Positions 14,580 through 46,153 of a stretch of 64,000 nt of DNA are shown here, piece after piece. The stretch lies in IMG/VR virus record IMGVR_UViG_3300035698_029839, positions 1 through 64,000 of that record; one strand, 5' to 3'. Numbering within the stretch: the stretch's first letter is position 1; each line of letters opens with the position of its first letter. The notes beneath the pieces are model-generated. The model saw only the letters and a list, made by a program, of their open reading frames with translations. It made no database searches and was not told where the DNA came from. Position numbers and translations under genes: made by a program. Origin of the DNA: a virus.

Positions 14580-14845
14580 GATATAAAGTAGGAGATAAAG
14601 TTAAAATAAAGACTTGGGGTGAAACGAAAAAACTTGTTAATTTTAATTCTTTTATGGAAAAAGAAGTTGAGGAATTGAAAACTAATAGAATATTAACTAT
14701 TAAAGTAGTAAATGAAGGTTGTTATTATGCTATGAAAGAATCACGGTGGTTTTGGAATGATGATATGATTAAATGTTTAGCAAAAGACTTTAAAAAAGAA
14801 ATATACGAACCTATTAATGATAGATTTGAGATATTAGATTTATGA
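14576..14845 (+). CDS. Small SH3/KOW-like protein with C-terminal ILDL tag (89 aa)
   Basis: GTG start overlapping the previous stop. The N-terminus RYKVGDKVKIKTW is an SH3/KOW-like beta-barrel start, and SRWFWNDDMI is a conserved later strand. It is a paralogue of 33322-33642, which has KYKVGDIVKIKTW and ATWVWTDEMI. Both end PI-x-DRFEILDL, the recurring C-terminal tag of this phage. Function unknown. It lies between glycosyltransferase genes. Confidence 0.75.
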   Translation: MRYKVGDKVKIKTWGETKKLVNFNSFMEKEVEELKTNRILTIKVVNEGCYYAMKESRWFWNDDMIKCLAKDFKKEIYEPINDRFEILDL

Positions 14846-29898: not shown

Positions 29899-30186
29899 AT
29901 GATAGGTTTTTTTTGGTACAAACATCCTAAAACAGGGGAAATGATTTCAGATCAGAGAATGAGTGGTTATGAGGAGAAACCACTCATAATCAAAGGGGTA
30001 AAATGCGAATTAGTTCGTGATTATATACCTCCTCGTATTAAACATAAAAAACTAGGGCTCTGTATTATTAATAAAAATAGAGAAGTTTTTGAAGCTGATC
30101 CAGACTATGTAAAAAAATGCAGACCAAAATATGTAAAATTCCAAGATGGCCATAAAGAGAGATACGATCCCACAAAACACTGTTAA
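29899..30186 (+). CDS. Hypothetical protein (95 aa)
   Basis: 95 residues, basic, beginning MIGFFWYKHPKTGEMISDQ and ending RYDPTKHC. AAGGTGG precedes the ATG. No family recognised. It is followed by an AGTGA-class promoter. Confidence 0.55.
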   Translation: MIGFFWYKHPKTGEMISDQRMSGYEEKPLIIKGVKCELVRDYIPPRIKHKKLGLCIINKNREVFEADPDYVKKCRPKYVKFQDGHKERYDPTKHC

Positions 30187-30190
30187 TGTC

Positions 30191-30219
30191 TTGAAAAGTG
30201 AAAGCCGAAAAGACATAAT
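30191..30219 (+). promoter_or_regulatory. AGTGA-class promoter (TTGAAA-N17-CATAAT)
   Basis: TTGAAA 30191-30196, AGTGAAAGC spacer start, CATAAT 30214-30219. The ATG at 30226 begins 7 bases after the -10, at the expected transcript start, with no ribosome binding site between. A leaderless transcript is predicted. Confidence 0.7.
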
Positions 30220-30225
30220 AAGTAT

Positions 30226-30585
30226 ATGAGATTCATACGAAAAGAATTTATAGTCACAACTATATTTAACAAAGAATTAACTGAGAAAGATGAAGTTCTA
30301 ATTGTTTTTAATAATCTGCTAAATGAGAGAATAGAATTCTCTATGATTATGAAAAAATACATGCCTCATCAACAAGATTATTTTAGCATAAGTTTTGAGA
30401 GGGTGAGAGTAAAAAAGATATATGAAAATGATACTGTTGATTTATTAGCTTTCAAAAAAGGAGTTAAAACAAGTATGAAAGCTGTGCCCTTTGATGATGT
30501 TATAGAAATAAATGCGACTACTAAAAAACATAAAATTTTAGATATAAATTCGGACATTGATAGATTCGATATTTTAGATTTGTAA
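30226..30585 (+). CDS. Hypothetical protein with ILDL tag (119 aa)
   Basis: 119 residues of mostly beta character (FIVTTIFNKELTEKDEVLIV, FSISFERVRVKKIYENDTV) ending SDIDRFDILDL. First gene behind the promoter at 30191, probably translated from a leaderless message. Function unknown. Confidence 0.7.
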   Translation: MRFIRKEFIVTTIFNKELTEKDEVLIVFNNLLNERIEFSMIMKKYMPHQQDYFSISFERVRVKKIYENDTVDLLAFKKGVKTSMKAVPFDDVIEINATTKKHKILDINSDIDRFDILDL

Positions 30586-30594
30586 GGAAAGATT

Positions 30595-30981
30595 ATGGAA
30601 CATAAAATGGGATTAAAAATTATAATGGTTAAAAGTGTTGAAGGGACAGAAGATTTTATAAAGGCAGAATCTAGTATTACAGGTCTCTCTGTTGAACAAG
30701 CTATATTAAATTGTTATTCAAAAGGGACAGTTATTACTATTGTTGCATTTAGTTTGAAAAATGCTATTGAAAGAGTGTTGTATCGATTAAACGCTTTATC
30801 AAAAGAAAAAAGAGAATTTTTTCTTTCGCAAATAGCGTGGGCATTAGTAGAGGTAGTAGATATGACGTGTAAGAAGGCTACTCCTATTCCAATAGGTGCT
30901 CCTGTAAAAGATTCAATAAGAGAAGATAAATTATATCGTATAGCAACATATTTAGAGAAAAATGAAAAAGAAAAAGTTTAG
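30595..30981 (+). CDS. Hypothetical protein (128 aa)
   Basis: 128 residues with a compact alpha/beta core (LKIIMVKSVEGTEDFIKAES, helices AIERVLYRLNALSKEKREFF). AAGGAAAG precedes the ATG. No family recognised. Overlaps the next gene by 20 bases. Confidence 0.55.
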   Translation: MEHKMGLKIIMVKSVEGTEDFIKAESSITGLSVEQAILNCYSKGTVITIVAFSLKNAIERVLYRLNALSKEKREFFLSQIAWALVEVVDMTCKKATPIPIGAPVKDSIREDKLYRIATYLEKNEKEKV

Positions 30982-31120
30982 ATGTGATTTTTGTGGTAGG
31001 TTTATATCAATTAAAGATTTAGATGAAGGAAAAGCGTATATAAAAATGGTTACTCCTGATTCTCATTTCACAAAAGAAGAATACGAAACTAGTTGTAAAG
31101 AATGTAATAAGAAGGACTAA
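30962..31120 (+). CDS. Small zinc-ribbon protein (52 aa)
   Basis: Reads 52 codons from the ATG at 30962 to TAA at 31118-31120, two bases before dnaE. FRCDFCGRFI and SCKECNKKD are two Cys pairs separated by about 35 residues. It overlaps the previous gene and is close enough to dnaE to be its co-transcribed partner. Function unknown. Confidence 0.6.
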   Translation: MKKKKFRCDFCGRFISIKDLDEGKAYIKMVTPDSHFTKEEYETSCKECNKKD

Positions 31121-31122
31121 TT

Positions 31123-32532
31123 ATGATTTTTGATAATAAAGATTATGTTCCGCTGCATTGTCATTCCGAATTTAGTCAATTTGATGGTTTGGCAAATATA
31201 AATGATCTAGCAATGCAAGCTAGGAAAATGGGTTTCCCAGCATGTGCTCTCACTGACCATGGTAATATTATGGGTTGGATTAAATGGCTTCAAGCATGTA
31301 GAGCCACAAAAGATAAGAAAGGTAAAGATATTCCTTATGCTCCTATTAAACCTATTCTAGGGTGTGAATTTTATTTATCTCGAAAGATGGATATAGGACA
31401 AAATCAAGAAAAAAGAGATACCGAAGTCATAAAAAAGAATCAACCTGATGGACGCAGGGGAAATAGACATTTAAATCTTTATGCTATGAATTTTGAAGGT
31501 TATAAGAATATATGCAATATGTCTCAAAGGTCTTATACGGAGGGATTTTATTACGATCCTAGAATTGATATCGATATGTTATCAAAGCATTCCAAGGGTG
31601 TTATGTGTGGTTCTGCATGTCTTTCTAGTGTTATTAATGCTAATCTAATGTATGGACGTTACAACCAAGCTAGAGAGACTTGTGGTATTTTAAACGAGAT
31701 CTTTGATGGTAATTTCTTTTTAGAGATGATGTACCATGGGATTAGTGAAGAAAAAGAAATTATTCCTTTAATTTTAAAATTGTCAACAGAATTAAATATT
31801 CCTGTTGTTTGTACCAATGATAGTCATTATATCCATAAGGACCAAGGAGCATCTCAAGAAGTTTTATTATGTATGTCTCAACAAAGATGTTTGAAAGATC
31901 CTAAAAGATTAAAATTCGGTCATATGGAATTTTATTTTAAGAGCGCGGAAGAAATGGCAGTTATGTTTGGACATGTTCCTCATGCTTTAACTAATTCTGT
32001 TGTTCTTGCTGAAAGAATAGATACTAAAGATATAGAGAAAAATCTTTTTGGAGGTATGAGACTACCTAAGTTTGATATACCTAAAAAATATAAAAATCCA
32101 TATGATTATATGTCTATTTTAGCATGGGAAGGAATGGAGAGAATTGGATGGGACAAAAGTAAAGAACATGTAGATACTTTAAAAATGGAATTAGAAGATG
32201 TGAAAGTTGCATATGAAAATAATAATTATGATTTCTCTACATATTTTTTAATAGTTAGAGATTATATATTAGAAGCTAAAAAGATGGGAACTTTTGTTGG
32301 TTGCGGCCGTGGTTCTGGGTATGCTAGTGTATTATTAAGATGTCTTGAAATTACTTATGGGGTAGATCCATTAAAGTACGGTCTTCTATGGGAAAGATTT
32401 TTGGGATTTGACTCCAAAAGGTTTATTAAAGAATCAGATTTCGGATTTGAAGAAGACTTGGTGCAACAAGCAGCAGATAGAGATTTGGAAGGAGATTTAG
32501 AGGAAGATTTAGGAGGCATTGATAGATATTGA
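31123..32532 (+). CDS. dnaE: DNA polymerase III alpha (DnaE), fragment 1: PHP and start of palm
   Basis: 469 residues. The PHP domain is complete (VPLHCHSEFSQFDGLANI, ALTDHGNIMGW, VVCTNDSHYIH). The palm begins normally with FVGCGRGSGYASVLLR and VDPLKYGLLWERFLGFDS, then stops before the catalytic P-D-I-D-x-D-F motif. That motif is in the separate ORF at 33679. The last 35 residues replace the expected sequence with a strongly acidic tail (EEDLVQQAADRDLEGDLEED). No intein motif is visible at this break. Four small genes lie between the two fragments. Confidence 0.9.
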   Translation: MIFDNKDYVPLHCHSEFSQFDGLANINDLAMQARKMGFPACALTDHGNIMGWIKWLQACRATKDKKGKDIPYAPIKPILGCEFYLSRKMDIGQNQEKRDTEVIKKNQPDGRRGNRHLNLYAMNFEGYKNICNMSQRSYTEGFYYDPRIDIDMLSKHSKGVMCGSACLSSVINANLMYGRYNQARETCGILNEIFDGNFFLEMMYHGISEEKEIIPLILKLSTELNIPVVCTNDSHYIHKDQGASQEVLLCMSQQRCLKDPKRLKFGHMEFYFKSAEEMAVMFGHVPHALTNSVVLAERIDTKDIEKNLFGGMRLPKFDIPKKYKNPYDYMSILAWEGMERIGWDKSKEHVDTLKMELEDVKVAYENNNYDFSTYFLIVRDYILEAKKMGTFVGCGRGSGYASVLLRCLEITYGVDPLKYGLLWERFLGFDSKRFIKESDFGFEEDLVQQAADRDLEGDLEEDLGGIDRY

Positions 32533-32756
32533 TAGATACAGATATTAATTGGAATGAACTAACAGAGCAAGAGAGAGAGAAAATACTTCAAAAAATATTA
32601 TCAACAGAAGAAGGTCTAACTGCAATGGCTATGAGTATGGCTCCCTCGCAGAAGGGATATAAGGAAGCACAAGAAATATATATTAAAAAATATGGAAGAA
32701 TAAAAAAAGAAATACTTGTTCCTATAAATGATAGATTTGAAATATTGGATTTATGA
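32529..32756 (+). CDS. Small protein with ILDL tag inside the dnaE break (75 aa)
   Basis: TTG start overlapping the stop of dnaE fragment 1, with AGGAGG upstream. Helical (ELTEQEREKILQKILSTEEG), acidic to basic, ending VPINDRFEILDL. First of four consecutive tagged genes. Function unknown. Confidence 0.65.
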   Translation: MIDTDINWNELTEQEREKILQKILSTEEGLTAMAMSMAPSQKGYKEAQEIYIKKYGRIKKEILVPINDRFEILDL

Positions 32757-32771
32757 AGGAAGAACTTACAA

Positions 32772-33065
32772 ATGGCTTTATCTGATTGGTCTGAAGAAAA
32801 CAAAGAAATAATTAAAAATGCTTTAAAAACGACAGAAGGAAGAGAAGGATTTAAAGAAGCTTTTTATGATACTGTAAATATTTCACTAGAAGATTATTTA
32901 ACGCAAACTTCTGAATCTTTAGGAACAGATGATTTAGAAAAGCATGTGCATAAAATAGTAGAAGATGTATCAGACATATTAGAAATAATTTATGAAAAAG
33001 ATGAAATAAAAGAAACAAAAATAGATAATCCTATAACTACCAGATTGGATATATTAGATTTATGA
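32772..33065 (+). CDS. Small protein with ILDL tag inside the dnaE break (97 aa)
   Basis: Acidic, helical, 97 residues (LSDWSEENKEIIKNALKTTE, LEKHVHKIVEDVSDILEIIY), ending NPITTRLDILDL. GAAGGAAG upstream. Its N-terminal repeat-like helix resembles the previous gene (TTEGREGFKEA against STEEGLTAMA), so they may be distant paralogues. Function unknown. Confidence 0.65.
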   Translation: MALSDWSEENKEIIKNALKTTEGREGFKEAFYDTVNISLEDYLTQTSESLGTDDLEKHVHKIVEDVSDILEIIYEKDEIKETKIDNPITTRLDILDL

Positions 33066-33319
33066 TTAAGGAAGAATTTAAACATGTTAAACTTTTTCCA
33101 ATGCAGGAAAATTTAATTGAAGAGATGGCAAAGGTTCAACCAATTGCAGACGAGTTAGAAGCACTAGGATATATCTATGCTCCGTACATTCCTTTGCAAA
33201 TATCTCTTACTCCTACTCTTAATATTTCTGATTTAATTACTCCCAAAAAATATACTATTAGGAAATATACAGATATTTATTCAGATATTGATAATAGATT
33301 TGAAATATTGGACTTATAA
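33062..33319 (+). CDS. Small protein with ILDL tag inside the dnaE break (85 aa)
   Basis: 85 residues starting in an ATGA overlap with the previous gene. It contains a hydrophobic, Pro-rich middle (GYIYAPYIPLQISLTPTLNI) and ends DIDNRFEILDL. No family recognised. Confidence 0.6.
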   Translation: MIKEEFKHVKLFPMQENLIEEMAKVQPIADELEALGYIYAPYIPLQISLTPTLNISDLITPKKYTIRKYTDIYSDIDNRFEILDL

Positions 33320-33321
33320 TT

Positions 33322-33642
33322 ATGAAATACAAAGTTGGCGACATAGTAAAAATAAAAACATGGGAAGCTATGGGGAGAGAGTTTATTTTTACGACTAGTG
33401 GGAATATATCAATACATAAGACTTCTCAGTATTCAACAGGGATGGAAGATCTTTTAAAAGAGATAGATACTAATAGGGTAGTAACAATATTAAAAGTGAT
33501 AGATAATGTTGTTCCCCCCAGAATACCTCATTACAAGATAGAAGAATTTGATGCTACATGGGTTTGGACAGATGAGATGATAGAGTGTAGTGCAGTGCCA
33601 GCAGTGCCGATACAAGACAGATTTGAGATTTTAGATTTATAG
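33322..33642 (+). CDS. SH3/KOW-like protein with ILDL tag (106 aa)
   Basis: KYKVGDIVKIKTW and ATWVWTDEMIECS make it a paralogue of 14576-14845. Both end PI-x-DRFEILDL. The fold suggests a small beta-barrel that could bind nucleic acid or protein. It is followed by a promoter for dnaE fragment 2. Confidence 0.7.
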   Translation: MKYKVGDIVKIKTWEAMGREFIFTTSGNISIHKTSQYSTGMEDLLKEIDTNRVVTILKVIDNVVPPRIPHYKIEEFDATWVWTDEMIECSAVPAVPIQDRFEILDL

Positions 33643-33643
33643 T

Positions 33644-33672
33644 TTGTAAAGTGAAAGTTATTTTAATATATT
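33644..33672 (+). promoter_or_regulatory. AGTGA-class promoter (TTGTAA-N17-TATATT)
   Basis: TTGTAA 33644-33649, AGTGAAAGT spacer start, TATATT 33667-33672. The ATG of dnaE fragment 2 at 33679 is 7 bases from the -10, with no ribosome binding site between, so a leaderless message is predicted. Confidence 0.68.
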
Positions 33673-33678
33673 TAAGTA

Positions 33679-34722
33679 ATGGCAGAAATCGAAACAAGAA
33701 AAAAAGAGATAATAGAATACGTTACTAAAAAACATTCTAAGAGCGACAAGTTATCTAAAATTATTTCAAAAGTTAAAGAAGAACTTGATGTTTTGGGATC
33801 AACTGATGGCTTAGAAGCAAAGAATAATTTAGAAGTATTTTATAATATATGGAAAAGTCATAAGGGCAAAGTAGGTCATAAGAATGATATAAATAGCTGG
33901 ACTGCTTTCTTTTTAGGCTTAACCAAAGTCAAACCTGATAAGGATTTTCTTCCTACCAGACGCGCTTTTGCAAGAGCTGGATTCCCTGATATTGATACTG
34001 ATTTTGATTATGAGAGCAGGGATAGTGTTTATACTTATATTATTGATAAATATGGTAGGGACAATGTGGGAAATATAGGAACTCATGGTTTGTTAAGATT
34101 TAAATCATGTGTCACTCGAGTTACAAAAGCCTTAGATTTAGCTAATGCTTATCATAAGGGGGACAGTCTTTTTGTTAGTGAGAATGCTGCAAAAGTGACT
34201 GAAATTTTATCACCTTTTCCCAAAAAAGGATTATTAAAAGTTACAGATGAAGATGGAGAAAGTCATCTTATAAAAACTTTTGAAGATGCATATGCGCATT
34301 GCTCTGATTTTAAGCACTATGTAGATAAGTATAAAGATAGTGGTTTTAAAAAATACATGGAACAAATTGAAGGCACTTTTGCTAATTTTGGATGTTTAGC
34401 AAAGGATACTCCTATTCTGACCGATGGAGGATGGAAAAGAATTGACCAGCTTTCTACCAAATTTTCTATAGCTTATATTAATAAGGATGGGGAAATTTCT
34501 TATACTGATAGATATAAAGCATTTAAAACAGGTAGAAAAAAAGTATATAGATTAAAACTTAAGGACGGTAGATTTATAGATGTGACTGATGAGCATCTTA
34601 TTTTTACAGATAAAGGATGTGTTAAATTTGAAGAAATTAGAAAAAATAAAGAAAATTATAAAATTTATGGAATAAAAAAGGATTCTTTGAAGAATGATAG
34701 GATTACTATACCAGCAGTGTGA
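33679..34722 (+). CDS. dnaE: DnaE fragment 2 (palm active site) fused to split-intein N half
   Basis: 347 residues. A basic, helical N-terminal extension (EIETRKKEIIEYVTKKHSK) precedes the palm core with the catalytic PDIDTDF (103-109) and YIIDKYGRDNVGNIGTHG. The DnaE part ends at GTFANFG, residue 238, in the loop before the conserved HAAGVV. From Cys239 the sequence is intein: CLAKDTPILTDGGWKRIDQL, then LKDGRFIDVTDEHLIF (block B, T-x-x-H-like). The remaining polymerase and the intein C half are in the ORF at 35838, so trans-splicing is needed to build the active site. Confidence 0.9.
   Translation: MAEIETRKKEIIEYVTKKHSKSDKLSKIISKVKEELDVLGSTDGLEAKNNLEVFYNIWKSHKGKVGHKNDINSWTAFFLGLTKVKPDKDFLPTRRAFARAGFPDIDTDFDYESRDSVYTYIIDKYGRDNVGNIGTHGLLRFKSCVTRVTKALDLANAYHKGDSLFVSENAAKVTEILSPFPKKGLLKVTDEDGESHLIKTFEDAYAHCSDFKHYVDKYKDSGFKKYMEQIEGTFANFGCLAKDTPILTDGGWKRIDQLSTKFSIAYINKDGEISYTDRYKAFKTGRKKVYRLKLKDGRFIDVTDEHLIFTDKGCVKFEEIRKNKENYKIYGIKKDSLKNDRITIPAV
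34393..34719 (+). other. Split intein, N-terminal half (109 aa)
   Basis: Begins with the nucleophile Cys (FG|CLAKDTPI) and contains blocks A and B (DVTDEHLIF). It stops at TGA 34720-34722 without a C-terminal block. Its partner is at 35838-35978. Confidence 0.9.
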
Positions 34723-34743
34723 TTTCTTACAGGAGGTATAGTA

Positions 34744-35604
34744 ATGAATAAATGTAAAATTTGCGGTAAAGAATTTAATAAAAGAATTTCTTTAGAGAGA
34801 CATATAACTAGTTCTTATGGTAAAGAAAAGAAAAAAAAGCATTGTCCTATTTTAGTTTATAAGTGGAAGTATGAGAAAAATAATAGATTTTCTAAAAAAA
34901 GTTTGATTAAGATGTATATAAAAGATAAAAAATCTACGCCTATGATGAAAGAAGAGTTGCAAATTAATAAAAAAACTCTTTTAGATACTATGCATTTTTA
35001 TAAAATTAAAATGAGAAGTATATCGGAAGCTTCTAAAAACCAGATTGAAAGGGATGGCTTGTGGAATAAAGGGCTTACTAAGAGGGACCATCCATCTATT
35101 ATGTCTTATGCTAAGCAAAGAAAAGGGAGAAATAATCCTTATTATACTGCTCCTAATTTTGAAAAAAGAAAGAAAAGAAATTTGGAGATATTAAAAAAAA
35201 CTTGGAAAAGTTTTAATGGAAAAAGGAATCCTAAATCCACAGAAAGAAGAATGGCTAAGATTTTAGACCAAAATAATATATATTATATTAGAAATTTTTC
35301 ATTAAATTATTATGAAAATGGGAAAACCAAATGGAGATTATTTGATTTTTTTATTGAGGGAAAATTATTAGTAGAAATGAATGGTAATTATTTTCATGCT
35401 AATCCTAAAATATATAAAGCAGATGATGAAATAGTTATAGCTAAAAGCAAGAGAAAAGCGAAAGATATATGGGAATATGATGTTAAAAAAATGAAGCTGG
35501 GCAAAGATAGTGGCTATAAAACATTAGTTTTGTGGGAAGCGGATTTTGTAGAGATGACAGATAAAGAAGCAATAAAAGAAATTAGGAGTTTAATAGATGA
35601 TTAG
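34744..35604 (+). CDS. Vsr-like (EDxHD family) homing endonuclease between split-intein halves
   Basis: 286 residues with a perfect AGGAGGT upstream. The N-terminus has a C2H2-like finger (CKICGKEFNKRISLERHI), and the middle has NUMOD-like helices. The C-terminal nuclease matches the Vsr-fold I-Bth0305I family: Glu in PKSTERRMAKIL, Asp in WRLFDFFIEG, VEMNGNYFHANP with the His, and IWEYDVKKMKLGKDSGYKTLVLWE. Known fractured-gene loci carry exactly this type of nuclease between split-intein genes. It would spread the interrupted dnaE to intact alleles. Confidence 0.85.
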   Translation: MNKCKICGKEFNKRISLERHITSSYGKEKKKKHCPILVYKWKYEKNNRFSKKSLIKMYIKDKKSTPMMKEELQINKKTLLDTMHFYKIKMRSISEASKNQIERDGLWNKGLTKRDHPSIMSYAKQRKGRNNPYYTAPNFEKRKKRNLEILKKTWKSFNGKRNPKSTERRMAKILDQNNIYYIRNFSLNYYENGKTKWRLFDFFIEGKLLVEMNGNYFHANPKIYKADDEIVIAKSKRKAKDIWEYDVKKMKLGKDSGYKTLVLWEADFVEMTDKEAIKEIRSLIDD

Positions 35605-35845
35605 CGAAGAAAATGAATTGCCTGAAAAATTTAAAGAAGTAATGCATCGTGCTTTTAAAGATTGTGACGAATTTTATAATGAAATTAGGGATATTCCTAT
35701 TAGTAAAGTAAAAGATTTAACAAATATAATAAAACTTTTTAAATCAAATATCTCAAATGAAAATGAGCAGAGTTATATTATAGACGGAAAAAGGGTTTTC
35801 AACCTGGCCGATATTAAAGAGGTTCAAAAAAAATATAATGAGTAA
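35597..35845 (+). CDS. Small hypothetical protein between intein halves (82 aa)
   Basis: 82 residues, acidic and helical (LPEKFKEVMHRAFKDCDEF), overlapping the endonuclease stop and the next start by 8 bases each. No family recognised. Its tight packing suggests it belongs to the mobile cassette. Confidence 0.55.
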   Translation: MISEENELPEKFKEVMHRAFKDCDEFYNEIRDIPISKVKDLTNIIKLFKSNISNENEQSYIIDGKRVFNLADIKEVQKKYNE

Positions 35846-35978
35846 TTTAAATTTGTTTAATATAGAATCAATTGAAGAATTAGATTTTGAAGATGTTTAT
35901 GATATTTCAATAGATGAAGATTGTGTTTTTTTTCAAAACGAGCATAATTATATAGCAAATAATATAGTTGTTCATAAT
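35838..35978 (+). other. Split intein, C-terminal half (47 aa)
   Basis: Contains block F (EDVYDISIDEDCVFFQNEHNY) and block G ending VVHN with the usual His-Asn, followed by Ser as the +1 extein residue. ATG at 35838 overlaps the previous gene. Confidence 0.9.
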
Positions 35979-37685
35979 TCTCATGCTGCGGGTGTGGTCG
36001 TATCGGATGTCCCTCTTGATCAAATAGCTCCATTAAGAAATGCTAGGAAGGGAATGCTGGCTACTCAATTTCCTAGTGAAGATTTAGAACTTCTCGGTCT
36101 TATCAAATTTGATGTTCTGGCTATAGCCACTTTATCAGTTATTAAAAAAGCAGTAGAAATGATAAAAGAATATTGGGGGATAGAGATAGATGTAGAAAAT
36201 CTTCCTATGAATGATGAATCTACATTTGAAATTTATCGCAAGGGGAATTTGGGAGGAGTTTTTCAATGCGAAAAACATGGTATGCAAAAAACTATGAGAG
36301 ATATAGGGGTAGATCGTTTCGAAGATGTTATAGCTGGACTAGCACTACATCGTCCAGGCCCTATGGATAGTATTCCTGAGTATTGTGCCAGGAAACACAG
36401 GGAAAAAGATGTTGATTATTTTCATCCCTCAATTGAGCCATATGTAAAGCCTTATTTAGAAAGTACTTACGGTGTCCTTTGCTTCCAAGAACAGGTTATG
36501 CAAATTTGTAATAGTCTTGCTGGTTTCACAATTACTGATGGATATATTATGATAAAAGCGATTGGTAAGAAAAAAGAGCACTTGATGAAAAGATTCGAAG
36601 AACAATTTATTTCTGGTTGTGTAGAAAAAAAAGTTCCCCAACATGTTGCTCAGCAGTATTGGACTAAGTTTATTACTCCATTCTCATCTTATGGGTTTAA
36701 TTTGTGTCTTGATGGAAGCATGAGTGTTAAAAATAAAAAAGATGGAGAAATTTATGAAATTGAAGAATTAGAAAAAGAATTTAAAAAAGGAAATAAATTA
36801 GAAATTGTATTGGATAGTTATAAGGGAGGGCTTATTGTGGAAGATATAGTTGTTGATATATTTTGCACAGGTAAAAAAGATATTTATGAAATAGAATTGG
36901 ACAATGGGTCTATTTTAAAATGCACTTTGGATCATAAGTTTATATGTGATGATGGCAACGAGCATACAGTAAAAAAGATTATGGAAGAAGATTTAAATAT
37001 TTTATATTTTCAAGAAAATATGAAAAAGTGCAAAATAAAATCAGTTAAATATCTAGAGAAAAAAAAAGCATTTAATTTAACCATGAAATCAGGACAGCAT
37101 AATTATGCTCTTTATGATATGAATAACAAATGTAGTGTTATAAGTCGTAATTCTCATAGTGCATGCTATGGTTATAACTCTTATACAACAGCATATTTAA
37201 AAGCTAATTATCCTGATGAATTTATATGTTCTTTATTAGATGTGACGATAAGTGGTTCTCAAGGAGAGAGATATGATAAGGTTGCTGCATTTGAGAGAGA
37301 ATTTAAAAAGAAGATGAATATTAAATTTCTTTCCAGAGATATAAATAAATCAAAAGTATTGTTTACTATTGAGAAAAGAAAAGATCTTTCAGAAGGCGTG
37401 AAAAAAACAGAAATACGCCCTAGTCTTTTATGTAAGGGGCTTTTGAAAAAATCAGCTATGAATATAGAAGAAAATCAACCATATGATGATATGAGAGATT
37501 TTGTTAGAAAAACTAATTCGTCATTAATTGATATAAGGGTAGTGGAGGCTTTGACTACAGGTGGATATTTCGGGAAAAAGTATATGGAAGATCCATCTGT
37601 TATTGTGAAAGATTTTGTGATGATTAGAGAAGATATGAAAAAAACTGCTAAAAAAGGAGTAGAAACTGTCGATTTATTTGCATAA
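35838..37685 (+). CDS. dnaE: Split-intein C half fused to DnaE fragment 3, with a second intein
   Basis: 615 residues. Residues 1-47 are the intein C half, ending NYIANNIVVHN before Ser48. The DnaE body resumes at SHAAGVVVSDVPLDQIAPL and includes the third catalytic Asp (LGLIKFDVLAI) and the fingers (GVFQCEKHGMQKTMRDI, LALHRPGPMDSIPEY). A second intein fills residues 290-438 inside the conserved YGFN-SHSACYGY motif. The C-terminus is short compared with host DnaE and ends VETVDLFA, which resembles the canonical QLDLF-type clamp-binding motif. The polymerase is active only after trans- and cis-splicing. Confidence 0.9.
   Translation: MSNLNLFNIESIEELDFEDVYDISIDEDCVFFQNEHNYIANNIVVHNSHAAGVVVSDVPLDQIAPLRNARKGMLATQFPSEDLELLGLIKFDVLAIATLSVIKKAVEMIKEYWGIEIDVENLPMNDESTFEIYRKGNLGGVFQCEKHGMQKTMRDIGVDRFEDVIAGLALHRPGPMDSIPEYCARKHREKDVDYFHPSIEPYVKPYLESTYGVLCFQEQVMQICNSLAGFTITDGYIMIKAIGKKKEHLMKRFEEQFISGCVEKKVPQHVAQQYWTKFITPFSSYGFNLCLDGSMSVKNKKDGEIYEIEELEKEFKKGNKLEIVLDSYKGGLIVEDIVVDIFCTGKKDIYEIELDNGSILKCTLDHKFICDDGNEHTVKKIMEEDLNILYFQENMKKCKIKSVKYLEKKKAFNLTMKSGQHNYALYDMNNKCSVISRNSHSACYGYNSYTTAYLKANYPDEFICSLLDVTISGSQGERYDKVAAFEREFKKKMNIKFLSRDINKSKVLFTIEKRKDLSEGVKKTEIRPSLLCKGLLKKSAMNIEENQPYDDMRDFVRKTNSSLIDIRVVEALTTGGYFGKKYMEDPSVIVKDFVMIREDMKKTAKKGVETVDLFA
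36705..37151 (+). other. Mini-intein in DnaE (149 aa)
   Basis: Cys1 at 36705 (GFNL|CLDGSMSVKNKK), block B around SILKCTLDHKFICDDG, block F AFNLTMKSGQHNYALYD, and the end VISRN before SHSACYG. No endonuclease domain. The penultimate residue is Arg instead of the usual His. It sits three residues downstream of the site used by the cyanobacterial DnaE split intein. Confidence 0.85.
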
Positions 37686-37689
37686 AAGT

Positions 37690-37718
37690 TTGAAAAGTGA
37701 TTGTTATTACATTAAAAA
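37690..37718 (+). promoter_or_regulatory. AGTGA-class promoter (TTGAAA-N17-TAAAAA)
   Basis: TTGAAA 37690-37695, AGTGATTGT spacer start, weak -10 TAAAAA 37713-37718 followed by GTAG. The ATG at 37729 follows within 10 bases and lacks a ribosome binding site. Confidence 0.65.
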
Positions 37719-37728
37719 GTAGTTGTAT

Positions 37729-37935
37729 ATGAACATAATAAAATGTCCTGAATGTGGAAGTGAAGATTTGTTTGTATATGACATCGATGGGTGTATTAAA
37801 GAGGGTAGAATTATCGAAGAAACGGAGTGCTTGAAATGCAATCACATTTTTACCGTAAAAGCAGAATTATCTAAAATAGAAATAGAGATAGAAAAGGAGA
37901 TAAAAAAATGCCAGAAGAACATAAAACTACTTTAA
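37729..37935 (+). CDS. Small zinc-ribbon protein (68 aa)
   Basis: IIKCPECGSEDLF and ETECLKCNHIF form a CxxC/CxxC zinc ribbon; the C-terminal part is a charged helix. I use the ATG at 37729; a TTG two codons upstream is in frame. No ribosome binding site, so a leaderless start is likely. It overlaps the next gene by 28 bases. Confidence 0.65.
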   Translation: MNIIKCPECGSEDLFVYDIDGCIKEGRIIEETECLKCNHIFTVKAELSKIEIEIEKEIKKCQKNIKLL

Positions 37936-38222
37936 GATTAGAGATAGATAAAACTATCCAGCCAAAACAATATGAGCCGATTAAGATTCAATTATCTATT
38001 GAAGAAAGTCTTTTTTGGAAAGACGAAAAAGACAGAGAAGAGAAAATAAAATTTTGTTCAGAAAAAATTACAAAAGATTTTATTAAAGCCTTTGATCATG
38101 TTGTTGCAGAAATAGGAGAAAAGGATAGATGTATTGCAATAGTAAATGGTTCTGGAAAAGTTACTGATAAAAAAGAACAAGTTGTTTCTTCTTCTCCTGA
38201 AGAAGAATGGGACTTTAGTTAA
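37908..38222 (+). CDS. Hypothetical protein with acidic Trp tail (104 aa)
   Basis: 104 residues with a beta-strand-rich start (KTTLRLEIDKTIQPKQYEPI), a central part and an acidic tail ending EEEWDFS. Tails of this kind also end DnaB and the SSB. GGAG precedes the ATG. It probably belongs to the replication cluster that follows; function unknown. Confidence 0.6.
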   Translation: MPEEHKTTLRLEIDKTIQPKQYEPIKIQLSIEESLFWKDEKDREEKIKFCSEKITKDFIKAFDHVVAEIGEKDRCIAIVNGSGKVTDKKEQVVSSSPEEEWDFS

Positions 38223-38236
38223 AATAGGTGTGAATT

Positions 38237-39457
38237 ATGACAAATGAGAATAGTTTACAAGAATTTGAAGATATGTTCAATCTATCTTCTAAAGATGAGG
38301 AAAATGGTCAAGCAGAAGAATATGGACATAGCATGAATTCTAAAGAACCATTTGAAAAGTTAGTAGAAGATGTAAGAGAGGATATAAAACAAGTTGAAGA
38401 TAAGGGTAGTTCTTTAGAAGTTGAAGATAAGGGTAGTTCTTTAGAAGTTGAAGACAAGGGTATTTCTTTAGAGGTTGAAGATCCTCATGATATTGTTAAG
38501 GATGTTGCGTCAAGAAGTAGTGAAGATGACCAAGATATTGTAAGCCCTGTTGAGGGTGTAGCTAATGTTGAAGAAGAAGATTTTGATTCTCTGCCCGACC
38601 AAGAGATAAAAACAGAAGAGATAAGAGAAATAGTAAAAGACATCAACGATTTTCATAGTGATATAAAAGTTGAAGAAGAAAAAGAGCAAGAAGAAAAAAA
38701 GAAAGAAGAGACAGAGAAAAAAGAGACGGAGAAAAAAGAGACGGAGGATGGGGAAACATCTCCTCTTGATAAGATTACCGTAGAAAGTTTCTCCATACTT
38801 GATGGTGACAAGATTAGATGGTCTTTAAAAAGTCCTTCTACTATGTACGATCCTTTTTATAGGCAAAAGAAAATAGTATTAGATAGTTGTCTTGCTGGGG
38901 GGCAGGTAGAATGCTCTTCGTGGAATGAAGAATTAAGAGATGCTCAAGTTAATGTAATTACTGAAGTTTTTGATCAACAAGTAATTATCAAACAAATGGA
39001 AGAAGTACAGCAGTTTAGAAATAGGGTTAAGTATATTGGTGTTAGAGTTAATAACCAATATTTCTTGTTCGATAGGTTTACACCCTTGTTGAGGGGATAT
39101 CTGGCAAGAATTCAATATTTAAAACCTGTTCTTAAGCAAGATGGTCTTATTTTAGAGCATATGGGCGATGTTGAAATGTATTTTGAAAGGTTGAGGGGTT
39201 TGCATAAATCTGTTGCTGATACAGAAAAGAATTTAGCAGCGGCTTATGAAATGCTTAGTAGAAAAGTAACTATTTGTATGGAACTTCCCCCTGTTGAAAG
39301 ATATAACAAACCAGAAGCTACACCATATCATTCTAAATTTTCAACTTCCAAAGAAATTACACCTTCGGAACTGGACGATTTTGATAATCTTCCTGACCAT
39401 GCTGAGGCAGGCCCATTAGAGAAAAAGAGTGGGGCAATTAGTTGGAACGAAATTTAA
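38237..39457 (+). CDS. Hypothetical acidic protein upstream of SSB (406 aa)
   Basis: Residues 1-185 are a low-complexity, acidic, disordered region with three VEDKG-[SI]-SLE repeats and KKETEKKET runs. The folded part (about 190-370) has EEVQQFRNRVKYIGVRVNNQ and a long helix (GLHKSVADTEKNLAAAYEML). It ends SGAISWNEI, again a tryptophan-acid tail. The position before SSB and RecA suggests a recombination or replication accessory, but I recognise no family. Confidence 0.6.
   Translation: MTNENSLQEFEDMFNLSSKDEENGQAEEYGHSMNSKEPFEKLVEDVREDIKQVEDKGSSLEVEDKGSSLEVEDKGISLEVEDPHDIVKDVASRSSEDDQDIVSPVEGVANVEEEDFDSLPDQEIKTEEIREIVKDINDFHSDIKVEEEKEQEEKKKEETEKKETEKKETEDGETSPLDKITVESFSILDGDKIRWSLKSPSTMYDPFYRQKKIVLDSCLAGGQVECSSWNEELRDAQVNVITEVFDQQVIIKQMEEVQQFRNRVKYIGVRVNNQYFLFDRFTPLLRGYLARIQYLKPVLKQDGLILEHMGDVEMYFERLRGLHKSVADTEKNLAAAYEMLSRKVTICMELPPVERYNKPEATPYHSKFSTSKEITPSELDDFDNLPDHAEAGPLEKKSGAISWNEI
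38393..38473 (+). repeat. Three 27-base tandem repeats
   Basis: Three direct copies of a 27-base unit encoding VEDKGSSLE, VEDKGSSLE and VEDKGISLE inside the disordered acidic region. The first two differ little, pointing to recent slippage. Confidence 0.85.
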
Positions 39458-39471
39458 TTTTAAAAAATAAA

Positions 39472-39490
39472 AATCACTTCAAAAGTGATT
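39472..39490. repeat. Hairpin overlapping the SSB promoter -35
   Basis: AATCACTT-CAA-AAGTGATT, an 8-base perfect inverted repeat with a 3-base loop. The right arm contains the AGTGATT element of the promoter, so it could be an operator for a dimeric regulator. Confidence 0.75.
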
Positions 39491-39506
39491 GTAAAAAGAT
39501 TATAAA
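39478..39506 (+). promoter_or_regulatory. AGTGA-class promoter for SSB/RecA (TTCAAA-N17-TATAAA)
   Basis: TTCAAA 39478-39483, AGTGATTGT spacer start, TATAAA 39501-39506, leader of about 35 bases with AGGAG before the ATG at 39547. The -35 lies in an inverted repeat. Confidence 0.75.
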
Positions 39507-39546
39507 GTATAAAGTAATTTAAATTTTTAGATAGGAGTAAAAAATT

Positions 39547-40245
39547 ATGGCAGAATATGTTCAGTGGGGTTCAGTCCCAAAAAGTGGTAATGGTGGAGAA
39601 AGAGGAGAATTTCTTAAGTTAAAGACAGGTAACACCTATCGTATCCGTCCTGTTTTTGATCCTCTGAAGTTCTATAAGTATTTTCACAAAAATGATAAAA
39701 GGTTGAGAACAGCTATCTGTGCAAAACCAGATATTTGTCCTGTTAGAGATAGGCATCCAGAGCTTAAAAAGCCTTCTATGCGTTACGCGGCTTATGTTAT
39801 TGATCGAGAAGATGGTAAGGTTAAAATTCTTGAAGCACCTCAGTCTGTATTCCGTCCAATCGGAAGTAGTTTTGAAGCTACAGGTAAAAATCCTGGAAGT
39901 GGTGCTGATGGTAGCGATTGGCAGATCAAGGTAACGGGTACAGGGTTGAATACTACTTATGATGTAGCATTTGCAGGTAATACTCCTCTTACTCAAGAAG
40001 AAAGAGCTTCTATAAAAGAGGCATTAGACGGAGATATGAAGAGACTTGAGAAAATTTACAAAAACGATACTTCAGAAGAGATCGAAGAAAAGCTGTTTGG
40101 AGATCCTGATAAGGCATCTAGCACTTCATCTAATGATGTTAGTTTTGGTAATTCACCTATTGAGCCTGTTGCCGCTGTTGAGCCTGTTGCCGCTGTTGAG
40201 AAACCAACAGAAAGTTCTGATAGCGATTGGGAAAATAACTTTTAA
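39547..40245 (+). CDS. Single-stranded DNA-binding protein (gp32-like)
   Basis: 232 residues. The core fits phage gp32-type OB folds: EFLKLKTGNTYRIRPVFDPL, a Cys/His group around TAICAKPDICPVRDRHPEL that may bind zinc, and QIKVTGTGLNTTYDVAFAG. An acidic Val/Ala-rich linker with two EPVAAV repeats leads to the tip SDSDWENNF, like the acidic aromatic tails by which SSBs recruit partners. It would coat single-stranded DNA at the fork. It lies 14 bases before recA. Confidence 0.8.
   Translation: MAEYVQWGSVPKSGNGGERGEFLKLKTGNTYRIRPVFDPLKFYKYFHKNDKRLRTAICAKPDICPVRDRHPELKKPSMRYAAYVIDREDGKVKILEAPQSVFRPIGSSFEATGKNPGSGADGSDWQIKVTGTGLNTTYDVAFAGNTPLTQEERASIKEALDGDMKRLEKIYKNDTSEEIEEKLFGDPDKASSTSSNDVSFGNSPIEPVAAVEPVAAVEKPTESSDSDWENNF
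40162..40197 (+). repeat. Two 18-base tandem repeats in the SSB linker
   Basis: Two exact copies of an 18-base unit encoding EPVAAV, in the flexible linker before the acidic tail. Confidence 0.85.
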
Positions 40246-44263: not shown

Positions 44264-46153
44264 ATGAAAGATTTTGAATTTTATAAAACAATTCGTTTTT
44301 CAAGTAATAAAGAAAAGATAGTAAAAGCATTTTCTAAATTACATAATCTATATCATACTATTCCTGATACAAAAGGGTGTTTGGATAACATCAACATAAA
44401 AGGAGCAGGCTGCAAAGCTTGGTGTTGTCGTATCCAAACACCCCAGTTTTTATATTCGGAATTTCTTTTAATTTGGAATTTTGTATCTAAAAATTGGGAT
44501 GATAATGACGTTTGTGATTTATTTGAAAAATGTATGTTAAATGCTGTTAATCCCGTCCCTTCCAAGGGGTGCGTATTTTTTGATGAAGATCTTTGTATGT
44601 GCAGAGTTCATAAAATAAGACCATATAATTGTTTTTTGCCAGAAACATGGGTTTATACAAAAAATGGTCCAAGAAAAATAAAAAGCATACTTACGGGAGA
44701 TGAAGTTTACGGAAAAGATGGAAAACTTTACAAAGTTAAAACAACAGCATCTTCATATCATAATGGGTTAGTATATAATGTGAAATATCAGGGAAATAAA
44801 ATAGATTCGTGGTGCACTGGAGATCATAAATGGTACGTAGATAGCAGAAAGGACAAAAGAAAGAAAGTTAATTTATTATGGGAAAGGGCAGAAAACCTCG
44901 TTAGTAAAAAATGTAAAAATTATGGGAATTATTTATCTATTCCTTATATCTACGAAGATAATGATAATTTAAATGAAATAATAGTAAATGATTTTATAAA
45001 AGCAAAAGAAGAGGGAGGGCGTTTAAAACCATTTACTGGAGGAGAAAACGGGGATGGAGATTTTACAAAATCATTGCCATTTAAAATAAAAATAGATGAA
45101 GAGTTTTTATTTATGATAGGGATATACTTGGCAGAAGGGAGCAGCTCAATTATGTCCGCTTCTTTTTCTATGAACATAAATGAAAAACATCATTTGTTAA
45201 GGATCGAAAAATATATAAATAGTTTAGGTATTTTGTGCTCTTGGCCAAAAATAAATCATAGTAAAAAGCTTATTGTTTTAAGAGTTGGATCTTGTTTATT
45301 TGCTCGTTTAATGACGGAAATAGGAGGAAAACTAGCTAATAAAAAAAAGATTAATAAAAAACTTTTTGGAAAATTTTCTTTTTTACAATTGAAAAAAATA
45401 TATGAAGCATGGAATATGGGGGATGGGAAAAAGAAAATGCCTGAAGGAGAGGCTTCTACTGTTACTGTATCTGAACTTCTGGCATTGCAAATGAATTTTA
45501 TATTAATAGCTAATAATATATTTTCAAGAATTTATAAATATAAAAGAAAAGACAGAGGATTTTGTAGTTATGATGTGCATGTTTTTCCATCTTGCAACGG
45601 ACAAAAAGTAAAAAAAGGACAAGGAACAAAGATAATACAAGCAAATGATAAATTTATAATACCATTGGATGATGTAAAAACTAAATATTATAAAGGACCA
45701 GTAATTGATATTCAAGTTGAAAATGCGGAAAGTTTTATTACTTCTTCAGGTATAGTTCATAATTGTCGAATTTATGGCATAACTCCTGCTGAAGAATTCG
45801 AACCAAGATATTTGCGTTTAAAAGAAGAATATAAAACTATTTTAGGGGCGGTTATTAAGCCACAATGTTCTTTAGTATCTACTATTGATGATATAGGATT
45901 AACAGTAGAAGATACTGATAAGTGGTGGGCCAAACTTGTTAAAATTGAGCAATCTATTGGTATCCCTAAAGATATGGTTACAGATGCTATAGGAGGAAGT
46001 TATAGAACTCCTCATGATCATATTCTGCTTTATAATATGCCAGAAAATGTTCTTAATGCTTTGTCTGGGATAAAAAAATATACAGATGAATTTGAAAAGA
46101 AAAAAAGAATTAGGGAATTAATACAGGTGATTAAAAATGTCTTCAAAAGTTAG
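44264..46153 (+). CDS. YkgJ-type metal-cluster protein interrupted by a LAGLIDADG intein
   Basis: 629 residues, of which 123-500 are intein. The extein is a YkgJ/Fe-S-cluster-binding family protein: KGAGCKAWCCRIQTPQF, CVFFDEDLCMCRVHKIRPYN and, after the intein, CRIYGITPAEEFEP. The host residue after the intein is itself one of the conserved Cys, so the cluster forms only after splicing. The biochemical role of YkgJ proteins is poorly known. It overlaps the next gene by 17 bases. Confidence 0.82.
   Translation: MKDFEFYKTIRFSSNKEKIVKAFSKLHNLYHTIPDTKGCLDNINIKGAGCKAWCCRIQTPQFLYSEFLLIWNFVSKNWDDNDVCDLFEKCMLNAVNPVPSKGCVFFDEDLCMCRVHKIRPYNCFLPETWVYTKNGPRKIKSILTGDEVYGKDGKLYKVKTTASSYHNGLVYNVKYQGNKIDSWCTGDHKWYVDSRKDKRKKVNLLWERAENLVSKKCKNYGNYLSIPYIYEDNDNLNEIIVNDFIKAKEEGGRLKPFTGGENGDGDFTKSLPFKIKIDEEFLFMIGIYLAEGSSSIMSASFSMNINEKHHLLRIEKYINSLGILCSWPKINHSKKLIVLRVGSCLFARLMTEIGGKLANKKKINKKLFGKFSFLQLKKIYEAWNMGDGKKKMPEGEASTVTVSELLALQMNFILIANNIFSRIYKYKRKDRGFCSYDVHVFPSCNGQKVKKGQGTKIIQANDKFIIPLDDVKTKYYKGPVIDIQVENAESFITSSGIVHNCRIYGITPAEEFEPRYLRLKEEYKTILGAVIKPQCSLVSTIDDIGLTVEDTDKWWAKLVKIEQSIGIPKDMVTDAIGGSYRTPHDHILLYNMPENVLNALSGIKKYTDEFEKKKRIRELIQVIKNVFKS
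44630..45763 (+). other. Full-length intein with LAGLIDADG endonuclease (378 aa)
   Basis: Starts CFLPETWVYTKNGPRKIKSI (block A) and ends ESFITSSGIVHN before Cys. The endonuclease blocks are FLFMIGIYLAEGSSS and KKIYEAWNMGDGKKK, with acidic residues in both. Block F is YYKGPVIDIQVENAESF. The site is the conserved R-P-x-x-C of the YkgJ family. Confidence 0.88.

What the first reader, a model, noticed from the sequence alone, without database searches (positions are those of the whole stretch)
33679..37685. Split intein in dnaE with a Vsr-like endonuclease gene between the halves
IntN (109 aa, Cys1) ends fragment 2; IntC (47 aa, VVHN then Ser) starts fragment 3. A gene with a perfect AGGAGGT encodes an EDxHD Vsr-like endonuclease in between. 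This is the fractured-gene arrangement described from marine metagenomes and linked to I-Bth0305I-type nucleases. The site, just before S-H-A-A-G-V-V, differs from the cyanobacterial DnaE site. The catalytic Asps are split between the two chains, so replication depends on trans-splicing.
Basis: partly seen in the sequence, partly recalled or inferred. Interest (0 to 1): 0.85.

Follow-up and report, generated by a model that had tools for sequence, protein, structure and literature searches.

The report
Split-intein-fractured DnaE polymerase of jumbo phage
A giant phage's DNA-copying enzyme is encoded in pieces, two of them carrying the halves of a self-splicing protein with a DNA-cutting 'homing' gene wedged between them, and related phages show the same spot empty, with an unbroken intein, and with a broken intein that has lost the cutter.

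Summary
Window 33679-37685 encodes a DnaE palm piece ending in a 109-aa IntN, a 286-aa Vsr/I-Bth0305I-type endonuclease, an 82-aa ORF, and a 47-aa IntC fused to the rest of DnaE. The junction is seamless in the sister phage's intact gene (L004). Taq DnaE D463/D465 map to one chain and D618 to the other.

I found the same element at the same site in two other viral genomes (L012, L018). L029 has the split but no endonuclease, L014 a contiguous intein with no endonuclease, and L004, L005 and L006 an empty site. Window versus L012, IntN and the endonuclease have dN/dS about 0.10, so both are under purifying selection. Best explanation: a fractured gene of the kind cited to Dassa 2009, in which trans-splicing rebuilds fragments 2 and 3 and the endonuclease drives homing. 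The dnaE host gene and site look new, but the kind is known (Aeromonas gp43, phage MIJ3 PolB, NrdA, TerL). Dependence of replication on splicing is inference. The set of states at one site makes the origin of split inteins testable.

The parts
31123..32532 (+). dnaE fragment 1: PHP domain and start of palm; separate gene, no intein
   Evidence: PF02811 E=1e-40, PF07733 positions 3-98; same separate ORF ending GG[VI]DRY in L004, L005, L006, L012, L018
33679..34392 (+). dnaE fragment 2 N-extein: palm with first two catalytic Asp (PDIDTDF)
   Evidence: PF07733; aligns to Taq DnaE 424-511 including D463 and D465
34393..34722 (+). IntN, 109 aa, Cys1, block B TDEH; stop at 34720-34722
   Evidence: TIGR01445 E=6.5e-8 above cut-off; 85% / 70% / 57% / 53% identical to IntN of L012, L029, L014, L018
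34731..34737 (+). AGGAGGT ribosome-binding site of the endonuclease gene
   Evidence: sequence
34744..35604 (+). free-standing Vsr-like (EDxHD-type) homing endonuclease, 286 aa, with N-terminal C2H2-like zinc finger
   Evidence: 80% and 52% identical to the gene at the same place in L012 and L018; zf-C2H2 E=5e-4, below Pfam cut-off
35215..35601 (+). catalytic domain of the endonuclease
   Evidence: AF2 pLDDT 92.6; Foldseek best PDB hit 3r3p I-Bth0305I, also 1cw0/1vsr Vsr; profile hits 3hrl E=4e-4, 3r3p E=0.036
35597..35845 (+). passenger ORF, 82 aa, overlaps both neighbours; no family; replaced by an unrelated 86-aa ORF in L012 and absent in L018
35838..35978 (+). IntC, 47 aa, blocks F and G (...VVHN)
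   Evidence: sequence; aligns with IntC of L012, L018 and the contiguous intein of L014; IntN+IntC together match DnaB and DnaX mini-inteins over most or all of their length
35979..36704 (+). dnaE fragment 3 C-extein part 1: third catalytic Asp (GLIKFD) and fingers
   Evidence: PF17657 E=6e-50; aligns to Taq DnaE 574-814 including D618
   Evidence: TIGR01445; best PDB match Npu DnaE intein 2keq E=2e-10; site empty in L004
37152..37685 (+). dnaE fragment 3 C-extein part 2, HHH motif, C-terminus TVDLFA, stop
   Evidence: PF14579 E=3e-8

Best explanation
This is a mobile split intein of the 'fractured gene' type inside a jumbo-phage dnaE. The two halves of an ordinary mini-intein are translated as the tail of fragment 2 and the head of fragment 3. 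They associate and trans-splice (Cys1 to Ser+1), joining the palm to the rest of the polymerase and reuniting the catalytic aspartates. The gene between them encodes a Vsr/I-Bth0305I-like endonuclease that cuts intein-free dnaE alleles of co-infecting phages near G^[CS]HAAG, so that repair copies IntN, endonuclease and IntC together. Shown here: anatomy, seamless junction, empty, contiguous, split and endonuclease-less alleles at one site, nuclease fold, purifying selection. Inferred: splicing, cleavage, homing, and dependence of replication on splicing.
For: Intein motifs and family scores. Seamless reconstitution: the joined exteins align without gap to the uninterrupted L004 ORF, 82% over 657 residues. 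The same element sits at the same codon in L012 and L018, IntN and IntC ORFs without an endonuclease in L029, a contiguous intein in L014, empty sites in L004-L006. IntN and endonuclease dN/dS 0.10-0.11 between window and L012; their dS (0.83-1.06) is below that of the surrounding dnaE pieces (2.1 to saturated). Nuclease fold. Same architecture annotated in Aeromonas phage Aes508 gp43, with a VSR-domain gene between N- and C-intein; endonuclease relatives between split TerL and NrdA halves.
Against: No splicing or cleavage data. IntC alone is below the TIGR01443 cut-off. No co-conversion signature in the flanks: window-L012 identity falls abruptly at the intein boundary, so recent homing is not demonstrated, and with saturated extein dS the lower element dS is weak evidence of transfer. 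The window's IntC gene has no clear Shine-Dalgarno of its own, so its expression probably relies on translational coupling.
Confidence: 0.9

Rival explanations
1. The intein halves are relics. The two DnaE chains work as a non-covalent complex, as genes-in-pieces enzymes do, and no splicing occurs.
For: Fragment 1 and fragment 2 are already separate chains with no intein, and this break is conserved in relatives. A paper in the library describes phage Aeh1 NrdA as encoded by two genes yet still functional without splicing (PMC3653736).
Against: IntN dN/dS 0.10 between window and L012. Cys1, TDEH, the terminal HN and a Cys/Ser at +1 are kept in all five intein-bearing genomes. In L029, which has no endonuclease, both halves are still intact and the IntC gene has a strong SD.
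Confidence: 0.07
2. The split is an assembly artefact or a recent pseudogene.
For: Single metagenomic record without reads.
Against: Same split point in L012, L018 and L029 from different metagenomes; all ORFs open, overlapping or closely spaced; low dN/dS.
Confidence: 0.01
3. The endonuclease is not a homing enzyme but a free-standing Vsr-type repair or host-DNA nuclease that happens to sit there.
For: The fold also resembles Vsr repair nuclease. The endonuclease can be absent while the split intein persists (L029).
Against: Relatives of this nuclease sit between intein halves of other genes: TerL, NrdA, gp43. The nearest fold is the homing enzyme I-Bth0305I. It has an N-terminal zinc finger and long linker, as elongated phage homing enzymes do.
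Confidence: 0.06

Closest known systems
Fractured genes with split inteins and Vsr-like homing endonucleases (cited as Dassa et al. 2009 in PMC3653736, PMC6892783; that paper itself was not available here)
   Same: Split intein halves on two host-gene fragments with a free-standing endonuclease gene between; same nuclease class (the latter from general knowledge of that paper)
   Different: Host gene is a phage family-C polymerase (dnaE), palm site; here with a passenger ORF, and with empty, contiguous and endonuclease-less alleles at the same site
Aeromonas phage Aes508 gp43 (JN377894)
   Same: Replicative polymerase broken twice: once without an intein, once by a split intein with a VSR-domain gene between
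   Different: Family B polymerase, not DnaE; about 30% identity, only over the nuclease domain
Pseudomonas phage MIJ3 PolB split intein (PMC6892783)
   Same: Split intein plus endonuclease gene in a jumbo-phage polymerase
   Different: PolB; the endonuclease is reported as HNH
Cyanobacterial split DnaE intein (Npu/Ssp)
   Same: Split intein in dnaE; the window's second, contiguous intein is related to it (2keq E=2e-10) and lies 4 residues downstream of its site
   Different: The split intein of the finding sits about 240 residues upstream; halves adjacent, not at distant loci; different intein subfamily (closest solved: DnaB and DnaX mini-inteins)
I-Bth0305I (EDxHD homing endonuclease)
   Same: Catalytic-domain fold (Foldseek probability 1.00, TM 0.52/0.66)
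   Different: I-Bth0305I is listed among group I intron homing endonucleases (PMC3943268) and its PDB entry is named mobile intron protein; about 20% identity; here N-terminal zinc finger and split-intein context

Membership tests
Split intein (trans-splicing) | IntN with block A nucleophile and block B TxxH on one polypeptide | tested here: met
   C1, TDEH; TIGR01445 above cut-off
Split intein (trans-splicing) | IntC with blocks F and G ending in HN, followed by Cys/Ser/Thr +1, on a second polypeptide | tested here: met
   VVHN^S; aligns with the contiguous L014 intein; TIGR01443 itself below cut-off
Split intein (trans-splicing) | Halves splice in trans | not testable with these tools
   needs a biochemical assay
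Fractured gene (split intein plus free-standing endonuclease) | Host gene continuous across the break once the intein is removed | tested here: met
   Gapless alignment of joined exteins to the L004 ORF
Fractured gene (split intein plus free-standing endonuclease) | Endonuclease ORF with its own start between the halves | tested here: met
   34744-35604 with AGGAGGT
EDxHD / I-Bth0305I homing endonucleases | Vsr-like catalytic fold | tested here: met
   AF2 pLDDT 92.6; best PDB hit 3r3p
EDxHD / I-Bth0305I homing endonucleases | Conserved catalytic residues | tested here: inconclusive
   DF, VE..G, H and W..D positions conserved in most of 9 relatives; the helix Glu is not uniformly alignable; no residue-by-residue check on the structure
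EDxHD / I-Bth0305I homing endonucleases | Site-specific cleavage of the intein-free allele | not testable with these tools
   needs a cleavage assay
Cyanobacterial DnaE split-intein site | Insertion before CFNKSHS of DnaE | tested here: not met
   Split intein lies between positions equal to Taq DnaE 573/574; the second intein lies near but not at the cyanobacterial site

The most novel reading that the evidence does not exclude
Phage dnaE genes are a place where split inteins are born. At site a the states empty, contiguous, split with endonuclease and split without endonuclease all coexist. At site b a relative of the cyanobacterial DnaE intein exists contiguous (window), fractured by a LAGLIDADG gene (L030), and another intein carries an overprinted Vsr-like gene (L014). 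The cyanobacterial split DnaE intein could descend from such a phage fractured gene that lost its endonuclease.
Probability: 0.2. Interest if true: 0.8.

Novelty: new member of a known kind. Interest (0 to 1): 0.55.

Why it matters
It puts the fractured-gene arrangement into the palm of a family-C replicative polymerase, between the catalytic aspartates, where the free chains should be inactive unless they associate. With its relatives it offers natural examples of empty site, contiguous intein, split with endonuclease and split without endonuclease at one codon of one gene. That makes the origin and retention of split inteins open to direct reconstruction and test. It also gives four natural IntN/IntC pairs of a little-explored subfamily for protein engineering.

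Tried and rejected
Group I/II intron or other structured RNA between the fragments: no Rfam match at E<=1 in 30000-40000. Assembly error: rejected by independent loci. Fragment 1/fragment 2 break as another split intein: rejected, no intein motifs, and the break is conserved as a plain break in relatives (L030 has the two fused). Co-conversion tract next to the insertion: looked for, not seen. Full-length endonuclease model: pLDDT 45, discarded; only the catalytic domain with 8 sequences modelled well. Family of the 82-aa passenger ORF: none found in Pfam, PHROGs or the fetched loci. Close relatives of the intein in cellular genomes: none in one scan of genome contigs; in 50,697 phage records only terminase inteins at 28-39%. 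Polarity contiguous to split versus split to contiguous: not resolvable, intein divergences are star-like.

Full report
Observation. Fragment 2 (33679-34722) carries 238 residues of DnaE palm followed by 109 residues of IntN. The endonuclease ORF is 34744-35604 with AGGAGGT at 34731-34737. Fragment 3 (35838-37685) starts with 47 residues of IntC ending VVHN, then S. TIGR01445 hits IntN at E=6.5e-8, above its cut-off. IntN and IntC placed together match the DnaB and DnaX mini-inteins. PHROG 405 ends at position 553 in fragment 2 and resumes at 553 in fragment 3.

Catalytic residues. Against Taq DnaE, fragment 2 carries PDIDTDF (D463, D465) and fragment 3 carries GLIKFD (D618) (the catalytic role of these residues is from general knowledge of Taq DnaE). 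The insertion falls between Taq residues 573 and 574.

Allelic states at this site. L004 (84% identical sister, 350-kb contig) has fragments 2 and 3 as one 657-aa ORF, reading ...GTFANFG-CHAAG..., and lacks both inteins. The joined window exteins align to it without a gap, 82% identity. L005 and L006 are also uninterrupted here. Among 64 sequences examined (the window, the anchor loci and those of the 80 retrieved dnaE loci in which the motif was recognised, some contigs fetched twice), only the intein-bearing loci named here are interrupted. L012 has the full arrangement: IntN, endonuclease 80% identical, an unrelated 86-aa passenger ORF, IntC. L018 has IntN, endonuclease 52% identical, IntC, no passenger. 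L029 has IntN and IntC ORFs with 28 nt between them and no endonuclease; its IntC gene has a GGAGG ribosome-binding site. L014 has the same intein unbroken, without endonuclease. So empty, contiguous, split with endonuclease, and split without endonuclease all occur at one codon. Their order in time could not be resolved.

Selection and transfer. Between window and L012, dN/dS is 0.10 for IntN and 0.11 for the endonuclease. dS is 0.83 and 1.06 for these, 1.15 for IntC, and 2.1 to saturated for the flanking dnaE pieces. This fits an element whose copies separated later than the host genes, but extein dS is saturated and there is no conserved tract next to the junction, so recent homing is not proven.

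Endonuclease. The first 24 residues resemble a C2H2 finger (below Pfam cut-off). The catalytic domain, modelled from an alignment of eight sequences, reached pLDDT 92.6. Its best PDB match is the I-Bth0305I catalytic domain (probability 1.00, E=9e-4), with Vsr also at probability about 1.00. A profile search independently gave 3hrl (4e-4), 3r3p (0.036) and Vsr (0.21). Relatives of this domain lie between split-intein halves of a terminase (L022) and ribonucleotide reductases (L024, L025), and beside an intein-bearing RecA-like gene (L023). In Aeromonas phage Aes508 a VSR-domain gene lies between the intein halves of gp43.

What is known. Papers in the library attribute the fractured-gene arrangement to Dassa et al. 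2009 (cited in PMC3653736 and PMC6892783; that paper was not held). PMC6892783 reports a split intein with an HNH endonuclease in PolB of phage MIJ3. Searches for such an element in phage dnaE found no paper, and no close relative of this IntN in 50,697 phage records or in the cellular genome collection. I therefore call it a new member of a known kind: new host gene and site, known arrangement.

How it most likely works. All genes are on one strand and overlap or nearly so. The endonuclease has a strong SD and the window's IntC gene does not, so fragment 3 is probably made by translational coupling. IntN and IntC associate, splice and join the palm to the fingers; fragment 1 joins non-covalently. 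The second intein splices in cis. The endonuclease spreads the unit to intein-free dnaE alleles. Splicing, cleavage and homing are inference from family membership. Dependence of replication on splicing is plausible because the catalytic aspartates lie on different chains, but non-covalent assembly is not excluded.

Second site. The window's contiguous second intein is closest to the Npu DnaE intein among solved structures (2keq, E=2e-10) and lies four residues downstream of the cyanobacterial site. In L030 the same intein is fractured by a LAGLIDADG gene (PF14528 E=6e-11). In L014 the intein at this site stays open in frame across a 321-codon Vsr-like gene read in another frame; 0 of 5000 codon-order shuffles stay open. 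This looks like a possible step between contiguous and fractured inteins, and it keeps open the idea that the cyanobacterial split intein came from such a phage gene.

Noticed in passing
window stops at 14845, 27515, 29320, 29883, 30585, 32756, 33065, 33319, 33642, 51123, 51922, 52374, 62723 and 13 more in the 297,710-b record G000: 26 small, mostly unrelated proteins end exactly in a tail like [DNS]R[FL][DE]ILDL; 0.16 expected by chance. Codons vary synonymously, so selection acts on the peptide. Related phages carry variants (RFEILDI in L004; RFDLMDF, RFELMDL in L012/L029). Possibly a docking tag, e.g. for a sliding clamp; function unknown. Four of these genes fill the gap between dnaE fragments 1 and 2.
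   Followed up: partly
window 36705-37151; L030 6092-7246: Second dnaE intein related to Npu DnaE: contiguous in the window, fractured by a LAGLIDADG_3 gene in L030.
   Followed up: partly
L031 6031-6996 (= L014, reverse strand): Vsr-like endonuclease gene overprinted in another frame inside an open intein frame of dnaE; 0 of 5000 codon shuffles keep that frame open.
   Followed up: partly
window 31123-32532 and 33679-34722: DnaE palm is split without an intein; both pieces match an overlapping part of PF07733 (positions 3-98 and 68-160), suggesting a partial duplication at the break. L030 has the unsplit form.
   Followed up: partly
window 44630-44830, 47553-47771; G000 127267-127509: Three further intein N-terminal matches in the same genome (the first below cut-off), within long open frames.
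   Followed up: no
L018 253-2415; L012 7114-9735: Further apparent inteins in dnaE of relatives: in the PHP part of L018, and in the fingers of L012 (before CYQEQ), each long enough to hold an endonuclease domain.
   Followed up: no
L022 4700-9258: Terminase gene apparently fractured twice by split inteins, with a Vsr-like gene in the first break and an HNH-looking gene in the second.
   Followed up: no
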